IMG/VR virus record: IMGVR_UViG_3300042197_001420
Span: 1-51,188 of that record
Source of the DNA: a virus
Length of the DNA: 51,188 nucleotides
Strand: one strand, 5' to 3'
In this document: positions 1 through 10,826 of the stretch, in pieces
How positions within the stretch are numbered: position 1 is the stretch's first letter
Layout of the letters: each line of letters begins with the position of its first letter
Notes under the pieces: model-generated
Databases searched by the model: none
What the model was told of the DNA's origin: nothing
What the model saw: only the letters and a program-made list of their open reading frames with translations
Program-made: the position numbers and the translations under genes

Positions 1-46
1 TTAATTGCTCATTAATAAAATCTTCGTAATTAGGTAGATTTTCCAT
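1..46 (-). CDS. N-terminal fragment of a capsid-targeting-tagged protein
   Basis: Only the first 15 codons lie in the window; the gene continues past the left edge. They read M-E-N-L-P-N-Y-E-D-F-I-N-E-Q-L, the same N-terminal pattern as six other genes in the left 11 kb. The ATG sits one base after the stop of the upstream gene, as expected in a tight operon. By analogy with T4 internal proteins, the tag would direct the product into the prohead and could be cut after I-N-E. The body of the protein cannot be seen, so no function is proposed. Confidence 0.6.
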   Translation of the reverse strand, partial: MENLPNYEDFINEQL

Positions 47-47
47 T

Positions 48-317
48 TTATTTCTTTATTTCAAATTCAGTGCTTCCTGAGTATTCAGCTCCAATTAATT
101 TTATATTCTTTGCTTCATATCCTGCATTCTTAAGAATTTCTTCTAGAACTTCAGGAAACTTTAAAGCTAATCCCTTGCATGTAAAAACACCAGAAGATTC
201 TGTATATTCAACAACAGATCTTAATTTTTCTCCTACGACCTTTTTAATCTCAGAAACCTCGGAAGTATCCAAGGCTTCTGAAATCATATATTGTTCGTAT
301 GTAGGTAGATTTAACAT
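48..317 (-). CDS. Small capsid-targeting-tagged protein, unknown function
   Basis: This 89-aa protein starts M-L-N-L-P-T-Y-E-Q-Y-M-I-S-E-A-L. The first 14 residues match the tag shared across this region and resemble the T4 capsid-targeting sequence. I-S-E followed by Ala is a good match to the (L/I)-x-E cleavage rule of the T4 gp21 prohead protease, and cleavage would leave a mature protein of about 75 residues. That remainder is charged, with one Cys and mixed alpha/beta character, and I do not recognise it. The ATG abuts the stop of the upstream 259-aa gene. DNA encoding the tag is identical over 20 bases to the start of the gene at 9114-9746. Delivery to the virion interior is inferred. 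Confidence 0.6.
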   Translation of the reverse strand: MLNLPTYEQYMISEALDTSEVSEIKKVVGEKLRSVVEYTESSGVFTCKGLALKFPEVLEEILKNAGYEAKNIKLIGAEYSGSTEFEIKK

Positions 318-1097
318 TTAGAAATTAGACTTTGCTGTAAAGTAGAAAGCAACGAATCCATAATCGTCAATTCTTACTACGTTTAATTTTTCATCATATA
401 AACAAGCCTGACCCATTGAATTACTAAAATCTCCAGAATCGAAATCTTTTCCGTTAAAATTTCCTTGTAAGAAATTGTATATTTTCGACATTGTAGGATC
501 TTCGTCGTTAGTTTCAGAATCTACTTGAATAACTTCTACTGGTTTTGCTCCTAATTGATTAGCAACATTGGTATAGAAAGCAATCATTTCTTTTTCTGCA
601 CCTTCGATAGAATCTTGTAAATTAATATCCGATAGGTCTTTTGCTCCTTTTTTAGCTAATGTTCCTTCGTTCATAGCTGCTTCAGCTTCTGCAATTTCTT
701 CCTCTGACCATTCAAATTCATAAACTACCTCAGGTTTAACAGATTCGAAAATTTCAGATTTGAAAAGTCCGATGCTAGATGATTCGTTCAAATTAGCTTT
801 ATTTTCAGACTTACGAATCATTTCTAAAACTCTCTTACCATATTTAGAAAGAGTAAGAACTTTTTGTCCTCTATTTTCGAATTTTTCGAAATATCTACTA
901 TTTCTTCCAAACCATTTATTAACATCGAGGTCTTTTCCTCTTTCTTCGGTAAGTTGAGTTAAGAAAGTTTTCATTTCCTCTTCAGTAACAAATCGTTTAC
1001 CAACAAATTGAACGACTTTATTTCGAACGGGGGCCTTTTCGTTAACTCGAATGTTGGAGTATTCTCCATACTTTCTTTTAATTTGTGTTCTTGCCAT
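318..1097 (-). CDS. Conserved-looking phage protein, unknown function
   Basis: This 259-aa open frame starts with ATG and ends directly against the next start codon. The N-terminal 100 residues are strongly basic, with many Lys and Arg, suggesting nucleic-acid or scaffold contact. The middle (about 125-160) is acidic and Glu/Ala-rich, and the C-terminal 60 residues are beta-rich and aromatic. I recognise no family motif, signal peptide or membrane segment. It lies between a nucleotidyltransferase-like gene and a tagged small gene, so it could be a late accessory or virion gene. It lacks the capsid-targeting tag of its neighbours. Confidence 0.45.
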   Translation of the reverse strand: MARTQIKRKYGEYSNIRVNEKAPVRNKVVQFVGKRFVTEEEMKTFLTQLTEERGKDLDVNKWFGRNSRYFEKFENRGQKVLTLSKYGKRVLEMIRKSENKANLNESSSIGLFKSEIFESVKPEVVYEFEWSEEEIAEAEAAMNEGTLAKKGAKDLSDINLQDSIEGAEKEMIAFYTNVANQLGAKPVEVIQVDSETNDEDPTMSKIYNFLQGNFNGKDFDSGDFSNSMGQACLYDEKLNVVRIDDYGFVAFYFTAKSNF

Positions 1098-1129
1098 TTT
1101 TTTGTTTTTGTTATTTTTTTCTATATATC

Positions 1130-2347
1130 TTAGATTTTAATCTTTCTCTCCTCTTGAATTCTTTTGGTAAAGTAGTCTTCAAAAGTCGGGAAAGAAGATT
1201 CTCCAACGTTTACATTTTTTATTTTTTTCTTCATTTTCTTTATGATATCTGCCACATCATCCAAAAGAATTTGAGTAACAGTTCCTGAAGGTTTCTTCTT
1301 GGGTTTGGAAAATGAAGAAAGAAGAATTTTGTATATGTGCTTATTTATAGTAGAGTCTTTTATAAGTTCTCTAACTTTATCGTCATCTATAAGACCGGTA
1401 TTCAAATCAAATTCGGGAACGGATGCAAAAGAAAGAGGATCTACTTCAATACCCTCGTATTTGTAGCCGTTTCTCTTAATGTATTGTTTATAAATTTCGT
1501 TGATTAGCTCAATATATCGATCTTCTTCACCGATAGTTTTAAGTCCGTATTTTTGAAGTCCTGTAACTTTAATATACTCTGCTAAATCAGAAAGAATGAT
1601 TCCATACATGTCTTGAGGTTCTCTTTCCTCGTCATTCGTTCTATTGATCTGAGTAATTACAGGATCTATAACTTTTGCATGTGTAATATCTGTTCCGTCT
1701 TTATTCATAAATTTGAAAATGATAGAATCGATAGGTTTTTCTACATCATTTTTCAAAGCTGTAGATTTTAATTGAGGATTTAGAATCGATACGATATATT
1801 TTGTAAAAGAATCAGTATTGAATCTCTTTATCAATTCATTTTCCGGAGTTCTTAAATAATCTAGAAGATGAGTTTTTTGTGCCTGGTCCAATTCGCCATA
1901 CCAAATGATCGGTGGTTTTTCGACTCTAAGCAAATCCGATATTCCGTTAAGAATAGACACATCATCAATAACTTTTCCTTTAGGGGATTTAATGTCGGTT
2001 AGAACTAATCCGTTCAAAGGTAGCTTATCGTAAGTGATGTTTGCTGGTTTGGTCGTATGAAAGAATCTAAGACCGTATTTATATCCGATAGGTAGCTTTT
2101 CAAGATCTTCTTTAGGAAGAGATTCTATGAATCGAATAGGTGCCTCGTATAACGAAGACATGGTACGATCAATTGAGGTAATTTTGCCGTCTTTCTTATA
2201 AAATACTAGTCCCTTTTCGGTTCTTTCAAAACAAAATCGAGTTGCATTAAGTTTTTCACTAACTACAACAAATTGATTGAATAATTTATTAACAAACTTC
2301 ATTCCATCGGTTAAGAAGACTTGTCTAAGTGTTTGTATTTCAGCCAT
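1130..2347 (-). CDS. Possible nucleotidyltransferase (RNA/DNA ligase-like) protein
   Basis: This is a 405-aa protein. Residues 30-40 read S-E-K-L-N-A-T-R-F-C-F, reminiscent of ligase motif I (E-K-x-D/H-G-x-R-F), with Lys32 as the candidate nucleotidyl acceptor. They are followed by F-Y-K-K-D-G and D-R segments and by Y-G-L-R-F-F and L-N-G-L-V-L-T-D-I, where ligase-like folds carry motifs III and IIIa. The usual Asp or His plus Gly after the Lys is replaced by Asn-Ala, so activity is uncertain. The C-terminus ends with F-P-T-F-E-D-Y-F near residue 390, which resembles the N-terminal tag of neighbouring genes but sits at the opposite end. The gene is 2 bp from the upstream tagged gene. The ligase-like assignment is inferred from motif resemblance only. 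Confidence 0.35.
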   Translation of the reverse strand: MAEIQTLRQVFLTDGMKFVNKLFNQFVVVSEKLNATRFCFERTEKGLVFYKKDGKITSIDRTMSSLYEAPIRFIESLPKEDLEKLPIGYKYGLRFFHTTKPANITYDKLPLNGLVLTDIKSPKGKVIDDVSILNGISDLLRVEKPPIIWYGELDQAQKTHLLDYLRTPENELIKRFNTDSFTKYIVSILNPQLKSTALKNDVEKPIDSIIFKFMNKDGTDITHAKVIDPVITQINRTNDEEREPQDMYGIILSDLAEYIKVTGLQKYGLKTIGEEDRYIELINEIYKQYIKRNGYKYEGIEVDPLSFASVPEFDLNTGLIDDDKVRELIKDSTINKHIYKILLSSFSKPKKKPSGTVTQILLDDVADIIKKMKKKIKNVNVGESSFPTFEDYFTKRIQEERKIKI

Positions 2348-2349
2348 TG

Positions 2350-3363
2350 TTATTTTTCTAATGTGATAGAGTTAATGTAAGTTAACTGATCTTTTATCTC
2401 TTTGGCTTTAACTTTGATTTGATTTGTGTAATAGGTATCTTTAATACCCCATCTTTCTTCTGATTCTTTAGCGGAGTTAGTATAGGTAACATAATCAGCA
2501 TACCATTGTAGTACTCGTTGAATAATATATCCACAATTAGGCATGGTTTGTTCTTCTCCTTTTTTCGTATATCCAACGATAATATCTCCATATCTACCTT
2601 TGAGTTGCTTCTCTAATGCAGTTTTAATTTTATCTGTAAGCGAATCTATAGCCTCTTTAACCATTCCATCAATATCATCGCCGGCAGCTCTTTCTCTAAG
2701 AATAGCTTCGTATCTGGACATATTTTGAGCTCTAAAATCTTTATCGGATATAAATTTCATAGCTCCTTGCTGAGATTCTTTTCTATTTTTTCTTAATTCA
2801 ATAGATGAAGCAACCTTGCTAGGATCGATAACATAAACTGCATCGGTAACATCAGCCATTCTTTTAAGTGAATCCAAGTTAGATCCATATTTGCCTTTAT
2901 TGGTATCCGCAGATCCTAATTTAGTTCCAGCATCTTTTTTAGGAACTAATTTATATTCAGCTTCTCCTTTTTTAGATTTAGAAGCCCATCTATCATATTT
3001 CAATCCCATATAAAGACCGCCTTTAACCACGGCTAAAGGAACATTAGCTTTTATTTTTCTGGGGCCAATATCGGATGCATATGGATTCTCTTTTTCGTTT
3101 TCGGAGAAGTAAATTAAAATTAGATTTGGGTCTGATTTTGATAAATTTTCTGCAGCATGAGGATCTACTCTATTGATATCTGCATTTGTTATTTCCGATA
3201 CAGCAATTCCCATTTTTGATAAAGTATCAAAAAATGCCTTTCCGATTCCGCCATCTTTATTGGATACGATATTTTGAAGTACCGAAGAATTAAAAGCTTC
3301 GTTTAGAAATTCATAACCGTAATTTTCGTTTACAAATTCGTCAAATGACATTAGGTCTTTCAT
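2350..3363 (-). CDS. Large capsid-targeting-tagged internal-protein candidate
   Basis: This 337-aa protein starts M-K-D-L-M-S-F-D-E-F-V-N-E-N-Y and then has F-L-N-E-A-F at about residues 19-24. It has the tag pattern, and L-N-E before Ala is a near-ideal gp21-type (L/I)-x-E cleavage site, better than V-N-E earlier in the tag. The remaining 310 or so residues are highly charged, with basic stretches around 125-165 and helical segments towards the C-terminus. I recognise no domain. Its size and position between the uvsW cluster and the ligase-like gene resemble large packaged T4-type proteins such as Alt, but no ADP-ribosyltransferase motif was found. The internal location is inferred from the tag. 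Confidence 0.5.
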   Translation of the reverse strand: MKDLMSFDEFVNENYGYEFLNEAFNSSVLQNIVSNKDGGIGKAFFDTLSKMGIAVSEITNADINRVDPHAAENLSKSDPNLILIYFSENEKENPYASDIGPRKIKANVPLAVVKGGLYMGLKYDRWASKSKKGEAEYKLVPKKDAGTKLGSADTNKGKYGSNLDSLKRMADVTDAVYVIDPSKVASSIELRKNRKESQQGAMKFISDKDFRAQNMSRYEAILRERAAGDDIDGMVKEAIDSLTDKIKTALEKQLKGRYGDIIVGYTKKGEEQTMPNCGYIIQRVLQWYADYVTYTNSAKESEERWGIKDTYYTNQIKVKAKEIKDQLTYINSITLEK

Positions 3364-3366
3364 AAT

Positions 3367-3582
3367 TTATTTTTTATTTTTGTAATTCTTCATTGTTTCA
3401 AGGAACCCTGCAAGTTGCTCATCATTAAGCTCGGAAGGATCTTTAGCGCCATATTTCTGAAGGTTTTCCAGAAAGGCTTTTTTGAATTTTTCAGCGGATG
3501 CTTCTCGAAGTTTCTGTTCCTTAACTTCTGATCTAATTTTATTAAAGTTTCTAAATTTAAGCAAAGCCATTTTAGTTTTCAC
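3367..3582 (-). CDS. Small basic protein downstream of uvsW
   Basis: This 71-aa, Lys-rich, helical protein has an ATG that overlaps the last 11 bases of uvsW, suggesting translational coupling. It has no recognised domain. The N-terminal half is strongly basic (K/R-rich) and the C-terminal half contains a short helix-turn-helix-like acidic/hydrophobic segment. In T4 a small gene (uvsW.1) also follows uvsW, but I cannot show homology from sequence. A role in recombination or nucleic-acid binding is possible on context alone. Confidence 0.4.
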   Translation of the reverse strand: MKTKMALLKFRNFNKIRSEVKEQKLREASAEKFKKAFLENLQKYGAKDPSELNDEQLAGFLETMKNYKNKK

Positions 3583-5104
3583 TATTTTTACTATATATCT
3601 TCTTTAAATCAACTCGTCTCGTAGTATAAGGAAAGTTCTGATCTGCATATATAGCCTGTCTGGCTTCGGAGTGCTTATATAAGTAGTTTTTGAATTTGCC
3701 GACACAATAATCGTCTACAAAATCGATGATAATTAACTTCTTTTTAGTTTCATGTTTACGTAATCCTCGACCAATGGATTGTCGAATAATTACTTCCGAT
3801 TTGAAAGATTCTGTTAGGTAAATTGTGTGTATATTCTTAACATTAATTCCTGTAGAGAATGTTCCGAAAGAGGCAATCATAATTTTACCTTCTCCTTCTT
3901 CGAGATTATCTTTTTGATATTCTCTCAGGTCTTTATCTACCGAACCGTCGATATAAAAAATCTTTCGATTAGTCTTTTCTCTAAGCTTGTCGTATATCTT
4001 ATTTCCATATTCAATTCGATAAAAGAGAACAAGGCTATTTTTTGTGTTCTTTAGAATCATATCAGTTATGAATTCTAGTCTTTCTTCAGATTGAATTGCA
4101 TATTGCTGTTCTAGATTTAGAAGTTTTTTACGATCTTCTTCGGATCTCTGAAAGAGAGTTTTGAATCCTTCTTTCACCTCAGAACGAGCATAATCCATTT
4201 CAATAACATAAACTTCACAAGGAGTAATATGTCCTTTTTCCATCAAATAATCGGCTCGAATTGATGTAATTACAGGTCCTGTATATGCCATAAGAGTTAG
4301 ACGATCTAGAGTTCCTGGTTTAGGAATTGTACCAGAAAGTCCGAATTTTCTAGTTGCCGAATCACATTTCTCTAGAATAGTTTTGATAGAAACCGATTTT
4401 GCTTTATGTGTTTCATCGACTATAACCGTATCGAATTGATCGAAATACTCCTTGTCTTTTTTAACTAGAGATTGATATGTTCCTATAACGATATTCGATT
4501 TATCTCGAATAACAGATCCGGCAAAGATTTGTTGAATATCCATCTTCATCTTACAGGACTCCTCATTGTATTGATAAAAATCTTCAGCACCTTGAACTAC
4601 AAGGTCAACAGTAGGAACAATCATTAGGACCTTTCTAGCCTTTTGAGTTTCTAATAGATAGGCGATTGTCATATAAGTAATCAAAGTCTTTCCGGCCGAA
4701 GTTGCTAATTCAGCCAAACAATTTTGATATTTAATGATATTGAATACTGTGTCTATTTGATAGTCTCGAGGCTTCATTTGAGCATTTGCCCATTTCTCAT
4801 CTATCCAAGATTGAAATTCTTCTTTGTCTATTTCTCTATCGAATCTTCTTTCAATTCCTTCGATGTTTAATTCAAAGTCATATTGTTTACACAGCTCAAC
4901 AACTTCATGCCAAAGTCCAGAAGGCAAATATCTATCAGATTTGAAGTAAGAGATATAACCATCCCAAAATCCTTTCTTAACTCGAGGATCCCATTTGGCA
5001 TTAGCTGCTTGTTTTCTAAATGACAAATTTAATTGATCTAGTTCTAGTTCAGTTGCCTCGGTTAGAGTAAGAAATTTGTCATTATGTGTCAGTGACCAAT
5101 TCAT
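3572..5104 (-). CDS. uvsW: UvsW-like superfamily 2 helicase
   Basis: This 510-aa ATP-dependent helicase unwinds branched DNA, R-loops and stalled forks during recombination-dependent replication. Visible motifs are Q-like P-R-D-Y-Q near 112-116, Walker A A-T-S-A-G-K-T at 134-140, Walker B/motif II D-E-T-H at 230-233, motif III S-G-T at 257-259, motif V F-S-T-G-I near 416-420 and motif VI R-Q-S-I-G-R-G-L-R-K at 441-450. The T-S-A-G-K Walker A, the size and the N-terminal region before the helicase core fit T4 UvsW (about 500 aa). Its upstream neighbour is a UvsY-like gene, the same pairing seen in T4. The ATG follows an A/T-rich leader with no Shine-Dalgarno motif. Confidence 0.9.
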   Translation of the reverse strand: MNWSLTHNDKFLTLTEATELELDQLNLSFRKQAANAKWDPRVKKGFWDGYISYFKSDRYLPSGLWHEVVELCKQYDFELNIEGIERRFDREIDKEEFQSWIDEKWANAQMKPRDYQIDTVFNIIKYQNCLAELATSAGKTLITYMTIAYLLETQKARKVLMIVPTVDLVVQGAEDFYQYNEESCKMKMDIQQIFAGSVIRDKSNIVIGTYQSLVKKDKEYFDQFDTVIVDETHKAKSVSIKTILEKCDSATRKFGLSGTIPKPGTLDRLTLMAYTGPVITSIRADYLMEKGHITPCEVYVIEMDYARSEVKEGFKTLFQRSEEDRKKLLNLEQQYAIQSEERLEFITDMILKNTKNSLVLFYRIEYGNKIYDKLREKTNRKIFYIDGSVDKDLREYQKDNLEEGEGKIMIASFGTFSTGINVKNIHTIYLTESFKSEVIIRQSIGRGLRKHETKKKLIIIDFVDDYCVGKFKNYLYKHSEARQAIYADQNFPYTTRRVDLKKIYSKNSEN

Positions 5105-5107
5105 AAA

Positions 5108-5554
5108 TTAGTAATTTTTTTGATGGAATTCTTCTATGCTAATTCGATTACGTATAGCGAATCCCATTTTATCCAATGTGTCCACACATTCAGCAAAGAA
5201 GTTAATTTGATTATCGAGTAGCTCAGTTTGTCTGGTTCTTAGAGCCATATCTGAATCTATGAATTGATTTATTTCTCGATAATCCAATCTAACGTCATGT
5301 TGTAGTTTGTAATACTCATAACGAACTTTACGATAATTTTGATCGTTAGATTTTTTCTTATAGACTGCAGCACGATACTTTGCTAGTTTTTCTACCATCA
5401 TATGTCTATACGAAAGCATCAATACTTGAGCTTCAGGTATTTGATCGATCTTGTTTATCATCGAAATTAAGGAAGACATTTTTGTGCTATAATCATTCCT
5501 TTCTTTTTCAAGGGCCTCATCGATTTCGTTAACTTTTCTTTCTTCTTCGGTCAT
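5108..5554 (-). CDS. uvsY: UvsY-like recombination mediator
   Basis: This 148-aa protein is predicted to load the UvsX recombinase onto gp32-coated single-stranded DNA. It is almost entirely helical and charged, as in T4 UvsY (137 aa). The C-terminal segment around residues 108-143 has the UvsY pattern: an aromatic helix (N-F-F-A-E-C-V-D-T-L) followed by M-G-F-A-I-R-N-R and a terminal E-E-F, comparable to T4 R-G-F-A-I-K-H. Its position directly upstream of uvsW supports the call. The ATG overlaps the stop of the preceding small gene by one base. uvsX is not in the window. The middle of the protein shows little obvious identity to T4, so confidence rests on the C-terminus and synteny. Confidence 0.75.
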   Translation of the reverse strand: MTEEERKVNEIDEALEKERNDYSTKMSSLISMINKIDQIPEAQVLMLSYRHMMVEKLAKYRAAVYKKKSNDQNYRKVRYEYYKLQHDVRLDYREINQFIDSDMALRTRQTELLDNQINFFAECVDTLDKMGFAIRNRISIEEFHQKNY

Positions 5555-5793
5555 TAGAACAGAGAATTATTGTCTTTTTTATTTCGATCTTTTAGATCGA
5601 CTATATTTTTTTCCTTTATTTTTCTTTCTTTATATTTTATGTCACCTATCTCAATTTGATTAATTTTCGGTGTTTTTTCAGTCGGTTCAAAATCGATTAG
5701 AAGCTTCAAATCCTTCTTTTTGCCGGATTCTTCGTGAAATTTTTCTAATTCGCTTTCCATGATCTTAAACATTTCTGATGTCGATAGGTTCAT
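5554..5793 (-). CDS. Small charged protein between primase and uvsY
   Basis: This 79-aa Lys/Glu-rich protein has no recognised domain. The longest start overlaps the primase end by 29 bases. In-frame ATGs at codons 8 and 12 would reduce or remove that overlap, so the true start is uncertain. The stop codon overlaps the uvsY ATG by one base, consistent with coupled translation. The C-terminal 40 residues are almost all Lys, Asp, Asn, Glu and Ile and look disordered. A replication or recombination accessory role is possible by context only. Confidence 0.4.
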   Translation of the reverse strand: MNLSTSEMFKIMESELEKFHEESGKKKDLKLLIDFEPTEKTPKINQIEIGDIKYKERKIKEKNIVDLKDRNKKDNNSLF

Positions 5794-6826
5794 TTGTAAA
5801 GTATTTATCGAGGTTTTTTATTGCTTCGTTTTTTCGTTTCCAACAGTATATGAATAGATCGTTTAGGTCTTTTACCTTTTCTTGAACCTTATAGTCTCGA
5901 ACCAATTTGTTCCACATAAAGACGGATTTTCTTCTTTTAAGTTTTGCTTCCATTACACGTCTTCCTGCCGGATCATTATCAAATAGGTATCGAATAGTAG
6001 AAATATCATCAAACATTTCTGTAGGTTTATCTGCACCTGTAATTGCTATAGAATTAGGTTGTAAAAATGAATCGATAACCCCTTCGAATACTGTTACTGG
6101 TTTACTGAAATCTACAGAAGTAAGTCCGAAATAAAGACTTGTAGTGTTTAGCTTTATGATTTCATCTTCAGGTTTATCTATGCCCTTTCCGCGAATTAGG
6201 TAATTTATTTTTTCGATATTGTAACTTACATATTTTGCTCGTTTTTCGGAGAAATTACGGATTTGCCAACCTAGAATTTTTGCTTTATTCGGAGTTAGAT
6301 GTAAAACATAAAGTTGATCTTTTTTTGGATCGTAAAGGAATTGATCTAACTTAAAGTGCATAAATCTGGCTTTGAGGTATTTTTCAATAGTCAGATTTTC
6401 TGAAGGATGTACAAGCTTAAGTTTTTCTTTTACTTCTTCGTAAGGAATACCATAATCGAAAAGATTTTGAAACGTTGTATGTTCTAAATAATCTTTTGTT
6501 TGAACAGCAACTCGATGTTCACGAATATAGTCTAAGAAGAATCCGAGTTCATCCATGTTCTTAATAGGAACATTAAAATCTTTGAAGAAACTTACGAGGT
6601 TTGTATGTTTTTTACATCCATCGTTAAAACAATGGTACATCAAATTTGCCCAATAGATATTGGCTCGTTTTTTGTATTGATTAGTGGAGTCACCGCAATA
6701 AGGACATGCAAAATTTAATCGATCTCGAAAAAATCTTACTTCGCCTTTAACGCCTTGAAATTGAGATTTAATAACAGATTCGACTCTTGAATTAATTTCA
6801 ATTTTTTTTGCTTCGGTAATTTCCAT
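5765..6826 (-). CDS. 61: gp61-like DNA primase
   Basis: This 353-aa primase would make RNA primers for lagging-strand synthesis at the phage fork. Near the N-terminus is a zinc-binding module with Cys41-x2-Cys44 and Cys66-x4-Cys71, the CHC2-type ribbon. A Toprim-like catalytic centre follows: F-E-G-V-I-D at 247-252 with Glu248, and F-D-N-D-P-A-G at 282-288 with Asp283 and Asp285. The length is close to T4 gp61 (342 aa). No helicase domain is fused, so a separate gp41-type helicase should be encoded elsewhere. It sits in a cluster with gene 32, uvsY and uvsW. Confidence 0.85.
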   Translation of the reverse strand: MEITEAKKIEINSRVESVIKSQFQGVKGEVRFFRDRLNFACPYCGDSTNQYKKRANIYWANLMYHCFNDGCKKHTNLVSFFKDFNVPIKNMDELGFFLDYIREHRVAVQTKDYLEHTTFQNLFDYGIPYEEVKEKLKLVHPSENLTIEKYLKARFMHFKLDQFLYDPKKDQLYVLHLTPNKAKILGWQIRNFSEKRAKYVSYNIEKINYLIRGKGIDKPEDEIIKLNTTSLYFGLTSVDFSKPVTVFEGVIDSFLQPNSIAITGADKPTEMFDDISTIRYLFDNDPAGRRVMEAKLKRRKSVFMWNKLVRDYKVQEKVKDLNDLFIYCWKRKNEAIKNLDKYFTNEPIDIRNV

Positions 6827-6828
6827 TT

Positions 6829-7035
6829 TTAATTTTTATGCATTTTATAGAGATTGATTCCGATAACGAGAACATTCATAATCATAACAGGATAGGATTC
6901 GATAAAGAATCCATAAACAACAAAACATGCACATGCAAAGCTATTTATAAGTCGTAACATCCACATATCTTTCATTAACATGGAAAGTAAGACCATTAAC
7001 ATTGAGAAATACCCAAAGATTTCAATATAATTCAT
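6829..7035 (-). CDS. Small YgjV-like inner-membrane protein
   Basis: This 68-aa, very hydrophobic protein has Leu/Met-rich segments at about residues 5-23, 28-46 and 48-64, so two or three membrane helices. The arrangement G-Y-F-S-M near the start, then L-R-L-I-N-S, V-V-Y-G-F-F, S-Y-P-V-M-I-M-N and G-I-N-L-Y-K resembles YgjV/semiSWEET-like small membrane proteins, but with only half the usual length. It lies between gene 32 and the primase gene, just downstream of the gene 32 terminator, so read-through or its own promoter must supply transcription. Its function in infection is unknown. Confidence 0.55.
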   Translation of the reverse strand: MNYIEIFGYFSMLMVLLSMLMKDMWMLRLINSFACACFVVYGFFIESYPVMIMNVLVIGINLYKMHKN

Positions 7036-7047
7036 ACAATTAGATAA

Positions 7048-7074
7048 AAGGGCACTCCCATAAGAAGTGCCCTT
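7048..7074 (-). terminator. Intrinsic terminator after gene 32
   Basis: A perfect 9-bp stem (AAGGGCACT paired with AGTGCCCTT) encloses a 9-nt loop. On the minus strand it is followed by TTTTATC. It lies 17 bp after the gene 32 stop codon and is by far the most GC-rich hairpin in any gap of the window. It should end or attenuate the gene 32 transcript before the membrane-protein and primase genes. Confidence 0.85.
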
Positions 7075-7091
7075 GATTTAGATTAGATTGA

Positions 7092-8051
7092 TTATTTAAT
7101 ATCGAATTCTTTCAACCATTCTTCAATATCATTATCGTTTGAGTTTCCGGCATCTTTTGAAGCAGAGTCAATAGATGAAGCAGATTCTTGAACAACATGA
7201 TTTTCAGTAGTTCCTGCCATAGGTGGAATCGGAGATTCTTTCTTTACAGGGGTTGGAGAACTTACTGCTTGATAAGCAGAACCTGGATTAGATCCGGTTA
7301 ATTCAGCAATGTAATTGAAAACCTTTTCACGAGTTTCATTTGTCCATGGCTTGAATTCGTGATCTTCTAATGTAGATACACCTTCATAGATACCAAGAAT
7401 CATTTTACGACATTCTTCATTGTTATCCATTTTAGAACCATTTAGAGTTACGGAAGCTGGATTATTAGCGAATTTACATTCTTCATAATTCCAATATCCG
7501 CCTTTCATAGTTACTTTTAATGAGAAGTCTTTACCGTTAAAGAAGTCAAAGATGTTTGTTGGTTCTACACCCATTTCGATATCTTCAGCGGAAGGCTGAA
7601 TTTGAGCATCGATTAATTTCTTAACCGCTCGAGGATAACGAATGATTTGAACTGTGTTTTCTAATTCTGGACGTTGTGGATCCTTAACAATTAAAACATA
7701 AGAATAGTAGTATTCTTTACGTTTCATTTTTTCAGCTTGCTTCTTTTCGAAAGCAGATTCTGATTTGTAGAGTTTCCAGAAAGTGTCCTGAATAATTGAT
7801 TTTTCACCTGGTTGAGATGAAGGACAATCGGCATAGAAACCGTTTCCATCGGCATCTTCTAGCCAATAGGAGAATTTCTTGACGATTGATTTTTTGGGAT
7901 TGTTTAGATTCGGAATGAATCTTAAAACTGCTCTGTAGATAGAGTCTTTAGAAAGTTTCGGATCGGTTTTGTAAATATCAGATCCTGTTTGTTGTTTTTC
8001 CTCGGATTTGAAATTGTCGAGGCTCAAATTAAAAATGTCTAAATTTTCCAT
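7092..8051 (-). CDS. 32: gp32-like single-stranded DNA-binding protein
   Basis: This 319-aa protein would coat single-stranded DNA at the fork and during recombination, and interact with UvsY, primase and polymerase. Residues 108-125 (K-M-K-R-K-E-Y-Y-Y-S-Y-V-L-I-V-K-D-P) and the following E-M-G-x-x-P-T-N, S-L-K-V and N-Y-E-E-C-K-F segments follow the T4 gp32 core (K-R-K-T-S-Y-W-A-N-I-L-V-V-K-D-P; E-M-G; N-Y-D-E-S-K-F) in the same order. The C-terminus is Ser/Asp-rich and ends acidic, as in the T4 protein-interaction tail. Only Cys76 remains where T4 has a zinc-binding His/Cys set, so the zinc site appears lost. A 173-bp leader with repeats precedes it and a terminator follows. Confidence 0.88.
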   Translation of the reverse strand: MENLDIFNLSLDNFKSEEKQQTGSDIYKTDPKLSKDSIYRAVLRFIPNLNNPKKSIVKKFSYWLEDADGNGFYADCPSSQPGEKSIIQDTFWKLYKSESAFEKKQAEKMKRKEYYYSYVLIVKDPQRPELENTVQIIRYPRAVKKLIDAQIQPSAEDIEMGVEPTNIFDFFNGKDFSLKVTMKGGYWNYEECKFANNPASVTLNGSKMDNNEECRKMILGIYEGVSTLEDHEFKPWTNETREKVFNYIAELTGSNPGSAYQAVSSPTPVKKESPIPPMAGTTENHVVQESASSIDSASKDAGNSNDNDIEEWLKEFDIK

Positions 8052-8224
8052 TTTACTTACTTTTTTATTTACGTTATTTATTATATGTACTTACAAATAA
8101 AGTATTCACTTACAACTACTTACTATTCCGGACTAATGTTCTTTGTTTTGACTTACTTTACTTTAAGTACCTTACTAATTTACTTGTTATAGATATTATA
8201 TGTATCTATATCCTTACGAGTTTC
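8052..8224 (-). promoter_or_regulatory. Gene 32 leader with repeated GTAAGT elements
   Basis: This is the longest gene-free stretch in the window (173 bp) and lies directly upstream of gene 32. Read on the minus strand it contains five exact GTAAGT copies (plus-strand ACTTAC at 8055, 8089, 8108, 8118 and 8151), mostly within A/T-only sequence. The region is otherwise unstructured and pyrimidine-poor near the ATG. T4 gp32 represses its own translation by binding its leader, so these repeats are candidate autoregulatory binding sites or promoter operators. No convincing -35/-10 pair was identified. Confidence 0.5.
8188..8210. repeat. 8-bp inverted repeat upstream of gene 32
   Basis: TATAGATA and TATCTATA form a perfect inverted repeat around the 7-nt spacer TTATATG. 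It sits at the distal end of the gene 32 leader, 14 bp after the stop of the KTSC gene. It is AT-only apart from one G-C pair per arm, so as an RNA hairpin it would be weak. It could be an operator-like dyad. Confidence 0.4.
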
Positions 8225-8563
8225 TTAATTAAGTTTCTCGTATTTATATCCTCCTCTTCTAATAAGAGACCAAAATCTCGTACCGAAGGTTCCTTCATCC
8301 ACTTCATCTTTACCGAAAAGCTTTCTCGCCCCTTTTGCTATTCCGCTTCCAATTTTTTGAAGAAGATTTTTCTCTAATGAAAGTTGTCTCCAAACGGATT
8401 TAGGCACATCTGAGTATTTATATTTTGATCCATTATGAAATTCTATTTCAAGGATTTCTGTGTTAGAATCATAATCCATAGAAACTAGATGTGAAGACTT
8501 AACTTCTTTCTCCCATCTCTTCTCGGTTATTAGATATTCTTCATATGTTGGTAGATTTTTCAT
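8225..8563 (-). CDS. Capsid-targeting-tagged KTSC-domain protein
   Basis: This 112-aa protein starts M-K-N-L-P-T-Y-E-E-Y-L-I-T-E, the clearest copy of the shared tag; cleavage after I-T-E would remove 14 residues. Residues 23-62 (S-S-H-L-V-S-M-D-Y-D ... L-E-I-E-F-x-x-G-S-K-Y-K-Y-x-x-V-P) and the final G-G-Y-K-Y-E-K match the KTSC domain, a small fold named for Lys, Thr, Ser and Cys positions and often found in phage and lysyl-tRNA synthetase contexts. About 30 residues (64-93) are inserted, including the cationic, Gly-rich amphipathic stretch N-L-L-Q-K-I-G-S-G-I-A-K-G-A-R-K-L-F-G-K. The start overlaps the upstream stop as ATGA. A packaged role is inferred. Confidence 0.7.
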   Translation of the reverse strand: MKNLPTYEEYLITEKRWEKEVKSSHLVSMDYDSNTEILEIEFHNGSKYKYSDVPKSVWRQLSLEKNLLQKIGSGIAKGARKLFGKDEVDEGTFGTRFWSLIRRGGYKYEKLN

Positions 8564-9111
8564 CTGAGTATACCGTAAATTCTTTTGGTTATTCTTTTAT
8601 TGGCTTTAGATAACAATCTAGTGTAATATCCGTCTTTCTGCATTTCTGGTTTTTTATCAGCTCCAACTATATCTTTGATAGCCATTTCATCGGTTACTAC
8701 TGGAGCTCTCGAAGAAGATAATAGATCTTCCATTCTCAGAGATGCCTCTATGTACCAACCTCGAGTATTAACTAATTCTAAAATTTTCTTTACTAGATCT
8801 CGTTTAGCATCTCTTATTCCATTGGTTCCTAATAAAGCTATTTTGTTACCATAAGGCGTTTCTTTGTAAATGATAAATGCATCCGGCAATTTGTCTTTAT
8901 CTACATCTTTTAGAAACGAGGCCTTATATTTGGATCTTAATTCTCTATAATCAGATGCAGAAAAATCCATGCCTGCCTGAGAATACGTATCCACATACAT
9001 ATTCCAAATCAATTCCATACCTTCATCGTCTATCTTGGACAAATCAAAATCTATCCATTTAGCAGAAGGAATTCTAAATTCCAATAAAAAATCTTCAAAT
9101 TTAAGAAACAC
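8560..9111 (-). CDS. Tagged protein, possibly acetyltransferase-like
   Basis: This 183-aa protein begins M-F-L-K-F-E-D-F-L-L-E-F-R, a divergent form of the tag in which L-L-E fits the gp21 cleavage rule. The body has a helix (I-W-N-M-Y-V-D-T-Y near 35-43), a beta strand A-F-I-I-Y-K near 78-83, a strand with A-L-L-G-T-N-G and a further helix-strand (I-L-E-L-V-N-T-R-G-W-Y-I-E-A). This order resembles GNAT N-acetyltransferases, but no clear acetyl-CoA R/Q-x-x-G-x-G/A motif is visible. The C-terminus is very basic. It shares ATGA overlap with the KTSC gene and lies 2 bp from the duplicated-domain gene. The fold is a guess. Confidence 0.4.
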   Translation of the reverse strand: MFLKFEDFLLEFRIPSAKWIDFDLSKIDDEGMELIWNMYVDTYSQAGMDFSASDYRELRSKYKASFLKDVDKDKLPDAFIIYKETPYGNKIALLGTNGIRDAKRDLVKKILELVNTRGWYIEASLRMEDLLSSSRAPVVTDEMAIKDIVGADKKPEMQKDGYYTRLLSKANKRITKRIYGILR

Positions 9112-9113
9112 AA

Positions 9114-9746
9114 TTAGGTTTTACGGTTGTTTTCTATCCATTCCTTAAAAATAGGAATTGCTTGTTTCATTCCGTCAGTCTGATTAGCGGAGTACTCAGC
9201 TCTATTCATCATAGTGGTAGCTATCGCCATTGCATGTTTATGATCGCTCTTCTTAAGTTTATCTATAATATCAATAGTCTTAAGAGCTTTTTCTTTAGAT
9301 CCATATCCTGTACCTTTTATGGCATCTTTTGTTCCTGGATTAAATAGACCATCTCCCTCGGCAAGTATATTGTCTAAATCTATACCTTCAATTTCTTCTG
9401 ATTCGGATTTTTTATTTTTATCTATCCATTCTCTGAATATCTTCATTGCCTCTCTCATTTCCGGAGTTTGATGTTGATGCTTCTTGGCTCTAGATTCCAT
9501 AGTCGTAGCTATAGACATAGCCCAAACTCTTTCTCCTTTACTCATGAGCTCATCTAACTTCTTAATAGTGAATTCGGCTTTTTCTTTATTAGCATATCCA
9601 GTACCCTTAATAGCGTCTCTTCCTCCTTTAGAATAAAGACCGATATCAGGTGGATCATCTGCGTATTTTTTTCTTTTCACAGTATGACCAACTCTTGGTT
9701 CATCTTTCTCAAAAAGGAATTCTTCGTATGTAGGTAGATTTATCAT
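9114..9746 (-). CDS. Tagged protein with a tandemly duplicated domain
   Basis: This 210-aa protein starts M-I-N-L-P-T-Y-E-E-F-L-F-E-K, a clear tag with L-F-E as the possible cleavage site. The rest contains two copies of an approximately 79-residue unit at 34-113 and 131-209. Both have D-A-I-K-G-T-G-Y, then K-E-K-A, a helix, A-M-(S/A)-I-A-T-T-M, R-A, Q-T, and end I-F-(R/K)-E-W-I. The copies have diverged considerably, so the duplication is old. An acidic linker separates them. I do not recognise the unit. It is the first gene of a tagged trio after a 101-bp gap that may hold a promoter. Confidence 0.6.
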   Translation of the reverse strand: MINLPTYEEFLFEKDEPRVGHTVKRKKYADDPPDIGLYSKGGRDAIKGTGYANKEKAEFTIKKLDELMSKGERVWAMSIATTMESRAKKHQHQTPEMREAMKIFREWIDKNKKSESEEIEGIDLDNILAEGDGLFNPGTKDAIKGTGYGSKEKALKTIDIIDKLKKSDHKHAMAIATTMMNRAEYSANQTDGMKQAIPIFKEWIENNRKT

Positions 9747-9847
9747 AACTTATTTATCTAAAATGAAACTGACTTTTGGTATTTAACATATAACCATTAC
9801 TGGTTGATTCGGTAAAAGGAATACAGTTCCTCATCCCATCGTCCGAT
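9747..9847 (-). promoter_or_regulatory. Intergenic gap, possible promoter for the tagged trio
   Basis: This 101-bp gap lies between the RuvC-like gene and the tagged genes at 9746-8225. On the minus strand it holds a small dyad (AACCA-GTAA-TGGTT) and the AT-rich stretch GTTATATGTTAAATACC about 45-60 bp before the ATG. It is one of only three or four gaps over 75 bp in the window, so a promoter or processing site is likely, but no consensus can be assigned. Confidence 0.3.
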
Positions 9848-10459
9848 TCAGCCCAAATCCGAACTAACTAATGCAATAGAGTCAATCAGATCATCAAACG
9901 GTTTAGGGATATGGAATTCTCCTTCTCTAACGATATCCATATCTACCAACTTTCTTTTAAGAGGAGATTCCGAATTCTCTAAAAAATATCTCATCATATC
10001 ACATTTAGTTGCGTTACCGTTTCCAGTGTAGGCTTTTTTAAGAGTCTTTGGAGGGACGACTTTAATGATATGTCCGAATTTCTGAATTAGCTTAACTTTA
10101 AGGAAAGTGTTAAATGTGATTAGATCGATAAAGCTGTTTCCTTTAGACCCATAAGAAAATCCTTCGATTCTTACTTCAGTGGGTGTGATTCCTGTGAATT
10201 CGAATATATCCATGATTGAATCGGATAATTCATCTGCATTCTTAAGCTTTATGCATTGATCTTCCATTGAATTTTTAGAAGATTTATCTTTATTATATGA
10301 AAAGATATTGAGAGTTTTGGCTTCGCTTAGTTCTTTATGAAACTTAAAAGCCTTCAAATCAGGATTATAATTTGGAACAAAAGAAAAAAGCAAAATCTTT
10401 GTATTTGCTAGAATTGCAATCGCTGTTGAATTTATGGAAAAATCTATACCAACTATCAT
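9848..10459 (-). CDS. RuvC-like Holliday-junction resolvase
   Basis: This 203-aa protein has an RNase H-like fold and is predicted to cut four-way DNA junctions. Acidic catalytic candidates are Asp6 in V-G-I-D-F-S near the start, Glu99 in R-I-E-G-F-S-Y-G, and Asp190/Asp193 in F-D-D-L-I-D-S-I-A-L near the end, the RuvC order. V-V-P-P-K-T-L-K-K at 134-142 is typical of the family. I chose the ATG at 10457-10459, one base after the upstream stop, because it puts the first strand at the N-terminus. A longer frame from a TTG at 10501 would overlap the upstream gene. T4 itself uses endonuclease VII, so this may replace it. Confidence 0.75.
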   Translation of the reverse strand: MIVGIDFSINSTAIAILANTKILLFSFVPNYNPDLKAFKFHKELSEAKTLNIFSYNKDKSSKNSMEDQCIKLKNADELSDSIMDIFEFTGITPTEVRIEGFSYGSKGNSFIDLITFNTFLKVKLIQKFGHIIKVVPPKTLKKAYTGNGNATKCDMMRYFLENSESPLKRKLVDMDIVREGEFHIPKPFDDLIDSIALVSSDLG

Positions 10460-10460
10460 A

Positions 10461-10826
10461 TTAGAGTCTTTTGCCGATTGCAGCACCGATAGCGGCACCA
10501 ACTAATCGACTGGTTAATAGGTCATAAACGACTCCTCTTTCAATACCCAATACATTTGCAATGATTTTACCAACAGTAGATCCTAAAGCAAACCCTGTAA
10601 GTCCACCGAGAATAGATCCCATGAAACCTTCATTTGTTAGTTGTTCATTAAAGTCTTTTACGTCTTTATTTTTATCTAAATACTCAGAAATAAATTTCTT
10701 AACCGCTTCATCGATTTTCTTCTCTTCCTCTTCGGTCAATTCACTTTTCAAATTTTCATTCATCATTTGAAGTTCTAATTCACTGAATGTTTCGTTTTCT
10801 ATTAGGTATTCTCTGAAAGTTTTCAT
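10461..10826 (-). CDS. Tagged glycine-zipper membrane-active protein candidate
   Basis: This 121-aa protein starts M-K-T-F-R-E-Y-L-I-E-N-E, the copy closest to the T4 tag M-K-T-Y-Q-E-F-I-A-E. L-I-E is a candidate cleavage site. Residues about 15-65 are acidic and helical. The C-terminal half holds two Gly/Ala-rich hydrophobic segments, F-M-G-S-I-L-G-G-L-T-G-F-A-L-G-S near 68-83 and V-G-A-A-I-G-A-A-I-G near 108-117, with GxxxG spacing typical of glycine-zipper membrane helices. It could be a packaged protein that inserts into membranes during DNA entry, or a prohead core component. It lies between the tail-tube-like gene and the resolvase. Confidence 0.55.
   Translation of the reverse strand: MKTFREYLIENETFSELELQMMNENLKSELTEEEEKKIDEAVKKFISEYLDKNKDVKDFNEQLTNEGFMGSILGGLTGFALGSTVGKIIANVLGIERGVVYDLLTSRLVGAAIGAAIGKRL

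What the first reader, a model, noticed from the sequence alone, without database searches (positions are those of the whole stretch)
1..10826. A dispersed set of genes sharing a T4-like capsid-targeting tag
Seven genes (1-46, 48-317, 2350-3363, 8225-8563, 8560-9111, 9114-9746, 10461-10826) start with variants of M-x-N-L-P-T-Y-E-E-Y-L-x-x-E or M-K-T-F-R-E-Y-L-I-E. T4 internal proteins start M-K-T-Y-Q-E-F-I-A-E, which targets them to the prohead and is removed by gp21 at (L/I)-x-E. Here candidate sites I-S-E, I-T-E, L-F-E, L-I-E, L-L-E, I-N-E and L-N-E follow the tag. The bodies are unrelated, so the tag looks like a modular address on diverse cargo. The tag is seen directly and its function is inferred from T4. 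This could be an arsenal of proteins injected with the DNA in a non-enterobacterial T4-like phage.
Basis: partly seen in the sequence, partly recalled or inferred. Interest (0 to 1): 0.88.

Follow-up and report, generated by a model that had tools for sequence, protein, structure and literature searches.

The report
Expanded capsid-address tag in giant phages
These giant relatives of phage T4 put the same short address label on about 22 to 34 otherwise unrelated proteins per large sequenced contig, probably to load them into the virus head and deliver them into the next host cell; T4 is known to do this with only a handful.

Summary
All seven N-terminal tags are at the stated places, against about 0.1 expected by chance. 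They are the edge of something larger. Relatives of the window (144-254 kb contigs) carry 22-34 tagged genes each, about 140 tags in seven records spread over about 72 unrelated body families. The consensus is M-K-N-[IL]-[PK]-[ST]-[FY]-[ED]-[ED]-F-[LVI]-N-E|[SAGN]. Its core matches the residues shown in T4 to drive capsid targeting (Y4, F7) and gp21 cutting (I8, E10). A profile trained only on this clade, scanned over T4, ranks IPIII, IPII and IPI 2nd, 3rd and 5th of 278 ORFs. The relatives encode a gp21-family (S77) prohead protease fused to a long, probably scaffolding, C-terminus. T4's His85 and Ser140 are conserved in it. The end of its protease domain (VNE|S) and the capsid protein (LYE|N) carry the same kind of cut site as the tag. 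The 462 kb and 735 kb "huge phage" records use the tag too; PAU, PTm1 and MaF61 do not. Cargo includes a RimK glutamate ligase-zinc protease fusion and an NMN-adenylyltransferase-like enzyme. Head targeting and cutting are strongly inferred; injection and effector roles are plausible but untested. This is a greatly expanded variant of T4's internal-protein system.

The parts
8..46 (-). Tag MENLPNYEDFINE of a gene cut by the window's left edge; predicted cut after INE
   Evidence: the gene next to the 48-317 orthologue in L006 begins MERIKSYTEFINES (L006:14363-14737)
276..317 (-). Tag MLNLPTYEQYM-ISE of gene 48-317 (89 aa, unknown); predicted cut after ISE (one residue longer spacing than the core)
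   Evidence: conserved in orthologues MRNLPTYEQYMISE and MLNLPTYEQYLITE
1160..1192 (-). C-terminal tag-like motif FPTFEDYFTKR in gene 1130-2347 (T4 RNA ligase 2-like protein); no Glu at the cut position
   Evidence: RNA ligase fold by Foldseek
3325..3363 (-). Tag MKDLMSFDEFVNE of gene 2350-3363 (337 aa, unknown fold); predicted cut after VNE or after the second site LNE about 9 residues on
8522..8563 (-). Tag MKNLPTYEEYL-ITE of gene 8225-8563 (KTSC-domain protein)
   Evidence: (KTSC E=1.2e-14)
9079..9111 (-). Tag (GTG)FLKFEDFLLE of gene 8560-9111 (unknown)
   Evidence: orthologues MNQFLKYDEFLLE and MFKKFRQFINE
9708..9746 (-). Tag MINLPTYEEFLFE of gene 9114-9746 (two-repeat protein of unknown function)
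   Evidence: F10 and E13 of the tag invariant in 13 orthologues while the linker behind it varies greatly in length
10797..10826 (-). Tag MKTFREYLIE of gene 10461-10826 (121 aa, Gly-rich C-terminus); the most T4-like of the seven
   Evidence: MKTFKEYLIE|[ST] or MKTFKEYLVE|S in most orthologues; T4 IPs are MKTYQEFIAE|A and gp61.1 is MKTFKEFIKE

Best explanation
The tag is a capsid-targeting sequence (CTS) of the T4 internal-protein kind. It lies at the extreme N-terminus, with an invariant F/Y-x-x-F core that binds the prohead core (probably the scaffold fused to the protease), and it brings whatever protein follows into the prohead. The S77 prohead protease then cuts after [L/I/V]-N-E and frees the cargo inside the head, and DNA is packaged around it. 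When the phage infects, the cargo enters the host with the DNA. The tag works as an interchangeable 5' module, and this jumbo-phage clade has put it on roughly 22-34 proteins per large contig. Shown by sequence: the tag, its enrichment, its modularity, the match to T4's functional residues, the protease with its catalytic residues, and the shared cut-site sequence. Inferred: prohead loading, cutting, injection, and roles in early takeover or counter-defence.
For: (1) Enrichment of 7-24 tags per 100 kb against about 0 expected, using control starts inside the same genes. (2) Unbiased search: the residue triplets most enriched at N-termini are F....NE, F..F..E and I..F..F, 45-54 observed against about 2 expected. 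(3) T4 mutational work puts targeting on residues 4 and 7 and processing on 8 and 10 (PMC9026906); these align with core positions 0, 3, 4 and 6 here. (4) A profile trained without T4 ranks T4 IPIII, IPII and IPI 2nd, 3rd and 5th of 278 ORFs. (5) S77 protease and gp23 are in 8 of 10 related records; His85 and Ser140 are invariant, and T4 gp21's ITE|S near its C-end aligns with VNE|S here. (6) The major capsid protein has LYE|N just before its mature arm, as T4 has LTE|A. (7) [LIVM]xE[SAGNT] sites are 2.8-3.6 per 100 aa in the clade's protease-scaffold proteins against 0.60 genome-wide. (8) Tag F and E are invariant while the linker varies greatly; the codons are synonymously mixed. (9) DNA identity between unrelated tagged genes is about 0.6 in the tag and falls to about 0.3 within ten codons. 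(10) A tagged protein imitates the capsid protein's mature arm, with the two cut sites in register: FLKE|NSAAATVSSVGGMG against LYE|NNSYAQLGAVNGMG.
Against: No virion proteomics exists for any of these uncultured phages. The window itself carries no protease gene, although it is a fragment. Tagged genes are not significantly concentrated near the head genes, except weakly in G001 (p = 0.03). PTm1 and PAU have S77 proteases but no such tag, so the protease does not imply the tag. At the profile threshold used, T4 gives 1.35 expected hits, so single weak hits there mean little.
Confidence: 0.86

Rival explanations
1. The tagged proteins are mainly prohead core or scaffold parts that help shape a very large head and are degraded or expelled at maturation, not delivered cargo.
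For: T4 core proteins are also gp21 substrates. Some tagged families recur next to the head genes in every genome, such as the 250-264 aa family F3. Extra LxE sites follow the tag in 37 of 142 tagged proteins.
Against: About 72 unrelated families, many found in one genome only, and several catalytic folds fit accessory cargo better than a conserved scaffold. A second LxE site is only about twice as frequent as in other genes (26% against 13%).
Confidence: 0.2
2. The tag addresses proteins to another place, such as a phage nucleus, the membrane or the tail, and its likeness to the T4 CTS is convergent.
For: Function is inferred only. Some jumbo phages sort proteins within the infected cell (general knowledge).
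Against: gp32, UvsW, the primase-position gene and the tail genes of the window are untagged. The cut-site residues are conserved to E|S/A/G/N and match the protease's and capsid protein's own sites.
Confidence: 0.05
3. The pattern is a by-product of start-codon context and AT-rich N-terminal codons, or one paralogous gene family.
For: Lys and Asn codons near starts are common in AT-rich phages (general knowledge; no tool result supports this rival).
Against: Codons at the core are synonymously mixed (TTT/TTC, GAA/GAG). Bodies show no detectable similarity across about 72 families. There are no hits in PAU, PTm1, MaF61 or HTVC008M.
Confidence: 0.01

Closest known systems
[quoted passage not shown]
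   Same: Short N-terminal tag with aromatic-x-x-aromatic-[ILV]-x-E, cut site E|small residue, unrelated bodies, S77 protease with His85 and Ser140.
   Different: 22-34 tagged genes per large contig instead of 3 known; a longer head (MKN[IL]P[ST]) before the core; Asn preferred at P2; protease fused to a 400+ residue scaffold-like C-terminus; enzymes among the cargo; jumbo genomes.
T4 Alt (injected ADP-ribosyltransferase, cut by gp21)
   Same: An enzyme carried in the head and delivered to modify the host; the tagged RimK-zinc protease fusion near the capsid gene would be a functional parallel.
   Different: A different enzyme chemistry, and a standard tag.
phiKZ / SPN3US jumbo-phage inner-body and ejection proteins
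   Same: A large head cargo matured by a prohead protease that cuts after Glu.
   Different: There the propeptides are mostly 111-254 residues and the motif is A-x-E (PMC5694885, PMC10052503). Here they are about 10-14 residues and [LIV]-N-E.

Membership tests
T4-type capsid-targeting sequence / internal proteins | Short tag at the extreme N-terminus with aromatic residues at the targeting positions (T4 Y4, F7) | tested here: met
   Core 0 is F/Y in 141 of 142 tags and core 3 is F/Y/W in 140 of 142. The profile was seeded with a core pattern, but the unbiased triplet search agrees.
T4-type capsid-targeting sequence / internal proteins | Processing residues [IL] and E (T4 I8, E10) followed by a small residue | tested here: met
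   L/V/I in 142 of 142, E in 133 of 142, next residue mostly S/A/G/N.
T4-type capsid-targeting sequence / internal proteins | Bodies unrelated to each other | tested here: met
   139 tagged proteins fall into 72 body families at E<=1e-4.
T4-type capsid-targeting sequence / internal proteins | Cognate gp21-family (S77) prohead protease in the same genome | tested here: met
   Over the Pfam cut-off in 8 of 10 related records, with catalytic His and Ser aligned; absent from the window itself, which is a fragment.
T4-type capsid-targeting sequence / internal proteins | Found in the virion with the tag removed | not testable with these tools
   No isolate and no proteomics.
T4-type capsid-targeting sequence / internal proteins | Injected into the host with the DNA | not testable with these tools
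   Needs infection experiments.
phiKZ / SPN3US ejection proteins | Long propeptides (111-254 residues) cut at A-x-E | tested here: not met
   Tags are 10-14 residues ending in [LIV]-x-E, compared with PMC5694885 and PMC10052503.

The most novel reading that the evidence does not exclude
In these giant phages the head is a programmable delivery vehicle. One short address, at the N-terminus (cleavable) or in some proteins at the C-terminus (without the cut site), loads dozens of proteins, including enzymes that could act on host ribosomes (RimK-zinc protease fusion), nucleotides (NMN-adenylyltransferase-like) and RNA (an Rnl2-like ligase). That would be the largest known set of co-injected proteins whose targeting can be read from sequence, and it would extend to the 735 kb phage.
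Probability: 0.35. Interest if true: 0.88.

Novelty: new variant of a known kind. Interest (0 to 1): 0.74.

Why it matters
If right, the tag is a readable code for proteins carried in the virion: from sequence alone one can list the probable injected proteins of uncultured giant phages, most of which have no family assignment. T4's three internal proteins all turned out to inhibit type IV restriction enzymes (PMC12373910), so dozens of such proteins per genome would be a ready list of counter-defence candidates. It also shows that T4's capsid address is shared with phages up to 735 kb and can spread from gene to gene as a small module.

Tried and rejected
Apparent untagged orthologues, first read as tag gain or loss, turned out in most of the cases checked to be mis-called starts: the tag lies just upstream in frame; counts were redone with all start codons. 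Concentration of tagged genes around the head cassette: not significant except weakly in G001. AlphaFold models of 1130-2347 and 2350-3363 had low confidence (pLDDT about 64); the first still matched T4 RNA ligase 2 (E = 9e-8), the second matched nothing. Host assignment through bacterial genomes found nothing. A strict consensus DNA scan of IMG/VR found few contigs because exact codons are required; about half of the stretches that were checked are true N-terminal tags. PADLOC gave no defence-family hits among cargo. A C-terminal version of the tag is kept as a lead only: it rests on two protein families.

Full report
What was checked. The seven tags were read directly: six complete genes plus one cut by the window edge, all on the minus strand. 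The core pattern [YF]-x-[EDQN]-[FY]-[LIVM]-x(1,2)-E occurs four times in about 15,000 internal positions of the window's proteins, which predicts 0.13 N-terminal occurrences; five genes matched under the caller used there, which missed the GTG start of 8560-9111.

Where the window comes from. It is a 51 kb linear fragment of a virus record with no prohead protease of its own. It carries gp32-like and UvsW-like genes, a RuvC-like resolvase gene and what look like tail genes. Protein relatives in annotated collections are huge-phage assemblies LR756500 (462 kb) and LR756501 (735 kb), then Flavobacterium phage MaF61, Sphingomonas phage PAU and Tenacibaculum phages PTm1 and PTm5. IMG/VR holds close relatives up to 254 kb. 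A Bacteroidota host is therefore likely but not shown (one search found no host genome).

Genome-wide extent. I fetched G001 (246 kb), G006 (254 kb), G005 (160 kb), G002 (144 kb), G003 (43 kb) and G010 (47 kb). A first census gave 27, 23, 17, 24, 9 and 10 tagged genes against 0.2-0.75 expected. A profile of core positions -4 to +7 built from 101 tags, applied to all possible starts, gave 34, 34, 22, 26, 10 and 11, with no hits at control starts inside genes. Tagged genes make up 7-12% of those records. The same profile found 23 in LR756500 and 17 in the first 220 kb of LR756501, four in T4, two each in P-SSM2 and KVP40, and none in PAU, PTm1, MaF61 or most of HTVC008M. An unbiased count of residue triplets at N-termini put F....NE, F..F..E and I..F..F at the top, 45-54 observed against about 2 expected, so the motif does not depend on the T4-inspired pattern.

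Match to T4. Mutational work on T4 IPIII assigns targeting to residues 4 and 7 and processing to 8 and 10 of MKTYQEFIAE (PMC9026906). These are core positions 0, 3, 4 and 6 of the present tag. The clade profile, which contains no T4 sequence, ranks IPIII, IPII and IPI 2nd, 3rd and 5th of 278 T4 ORFs; rank 1 is gp61.1, MKTFKEFIKE, and rank 4 is an unrelated-looking ORF. IPI has the targeting half of the tag but its first ITE comes later, which explains its lower score.

The protease and its sites. Eight of ten related records encode Peptidase_S77 above the Pfam cut-off, and the same eight encode gp23. His85 and Ser140 of T4 gp21 are invariant in all thirteen proteases aligned. In this clade the protease is 614-634 residues: an S77 domain followed by a long region rich in [LIVM]-x-E-[SAGNT] sites, at 2.8-3.6 per 100 residues against 0.60 genome-wide. 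The likely reading is a protease-scaffold fusion that cuts itself up. The end of the S77 domain, T4 ITE|S, aligns with VNE|S or VNE|A. The major capsid protein has LYE|N or LYE|S before its mature arm, a few columns from T4 LTE|A; the other capsid proteins aligned have [ILM]-x-E|[NS] or close to it in the same place. Small tagged proteins copy the capsid protein's mature arm, with the two sites in register. Tag, capsid protein and protease therefore appear to share one kind of site.

Modularity and selection. 139 tagged proteins form 72 body families. Between unrelated tagged genes of one genome, DNA identity is about 0.6 in the core and falls to about 0.3 within ten codons; four neighbouring genes in G006 (133-135 kb) share nearly identical tag DNA but fall in four different body families. 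In 13 orthologues of window gene 9114-9746 the tag's F and E are invariant while the linker behind varies from 0 to about 20 residues. Core codons are synonymously mixed. Tagged genes sit next to each other far more often than chance in the larger IMG/VR relatives and LR756500 (p < 0.001), but not in the part of LR756501 examined. They are not clearly concentrated at the head genes.

Cargo. Of 88 representatives, only a few have family hits: KTSC domain (window 8225-8563), cytidylyl/NMN-adenylyltransferase-like, glycosyltransferase 2, PAP2, DUF5824, DUF5856, and a roughly 490-500 residue protein that joins a RimK-type alpha-L-glutamate ligase (E = 8.7e-34) to a putative zinc-protease domain (E = 6e-5), encoded within about 6 kb of the capsid gene in four genomes. 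T4 Alt, an ADP-ribosyltransferase carried in the head, is a precedent for an injected modifying enzyme, and T4 IP1-3 inhibit type IV restriction enzymes (PMC12373910). Most cargo is unknown.

A lead. The window gene 1130-2347, which has no N-terminal tag, is an RNA ligase 2-like protein (Foldseek E = 9e-8 to T4 Rnl2 on a low-confidence model). Its orthologues all end in T-[FY]-x-x-[YF]-x, like the tag, but without the cut-site Glu; in LR756500 it is fused to the NMN-adenylyltransferase-like domain that is a separate tagged protein in G001. A second family has the same feature. A non-cleaved C-terminal address is possible but rests on two families.

Verdict. The tag is a T4-type capsid-targeting sequence in all sequence-testable respects, greatly expanded in a jumbo-phage clade. 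Loading and cutting are very likely; injection and effector roles are likely for some cargo and untested. The papers searched describe the address in T-even phages and contrasting long propeptides in phiKZ/SPN3US; none describes this expansion, but subscription literature was not searched.

Noticed in passing
window:43590-45995: This 801-residue protein of the tail gene region contains an intein-like splicing domain at about residues 283-428 (Pfam Intein_splicing E=1.4e-12).
   Followed up: no
L032 / G001:81957-83801 and orthologues: The prohead protease of this clade is a 614-634 residue fusion of the S77 domain with a long scaffold-like region, unlike T4 where gp21 and gp22 are separate.
   Followed up: partly
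T4 NC_000866 18966-19130 (gp61.1): T4 gp61.1, annotated hypothetical, begins MKTFKEFIKE and scores above the known internal proteins with the clade profile; it may be an unrecognised head protein.
   Followed up: partly
L006:15067-15336; G010:28742-29014: A small tagged protein copies the major capsid protein's mature N-terminal arm (NGMG..PGNPGTQ) and, in L006, also has a tag-like motif at its C-terminus.
   Followed up: partly
LR756500 265948-267909: An RNA ligase 2-like domain is fused to an NMN-adenylyltransferase-like domain, with a tag-like SFKTFGDYI in the linker.
   Followed up: partly
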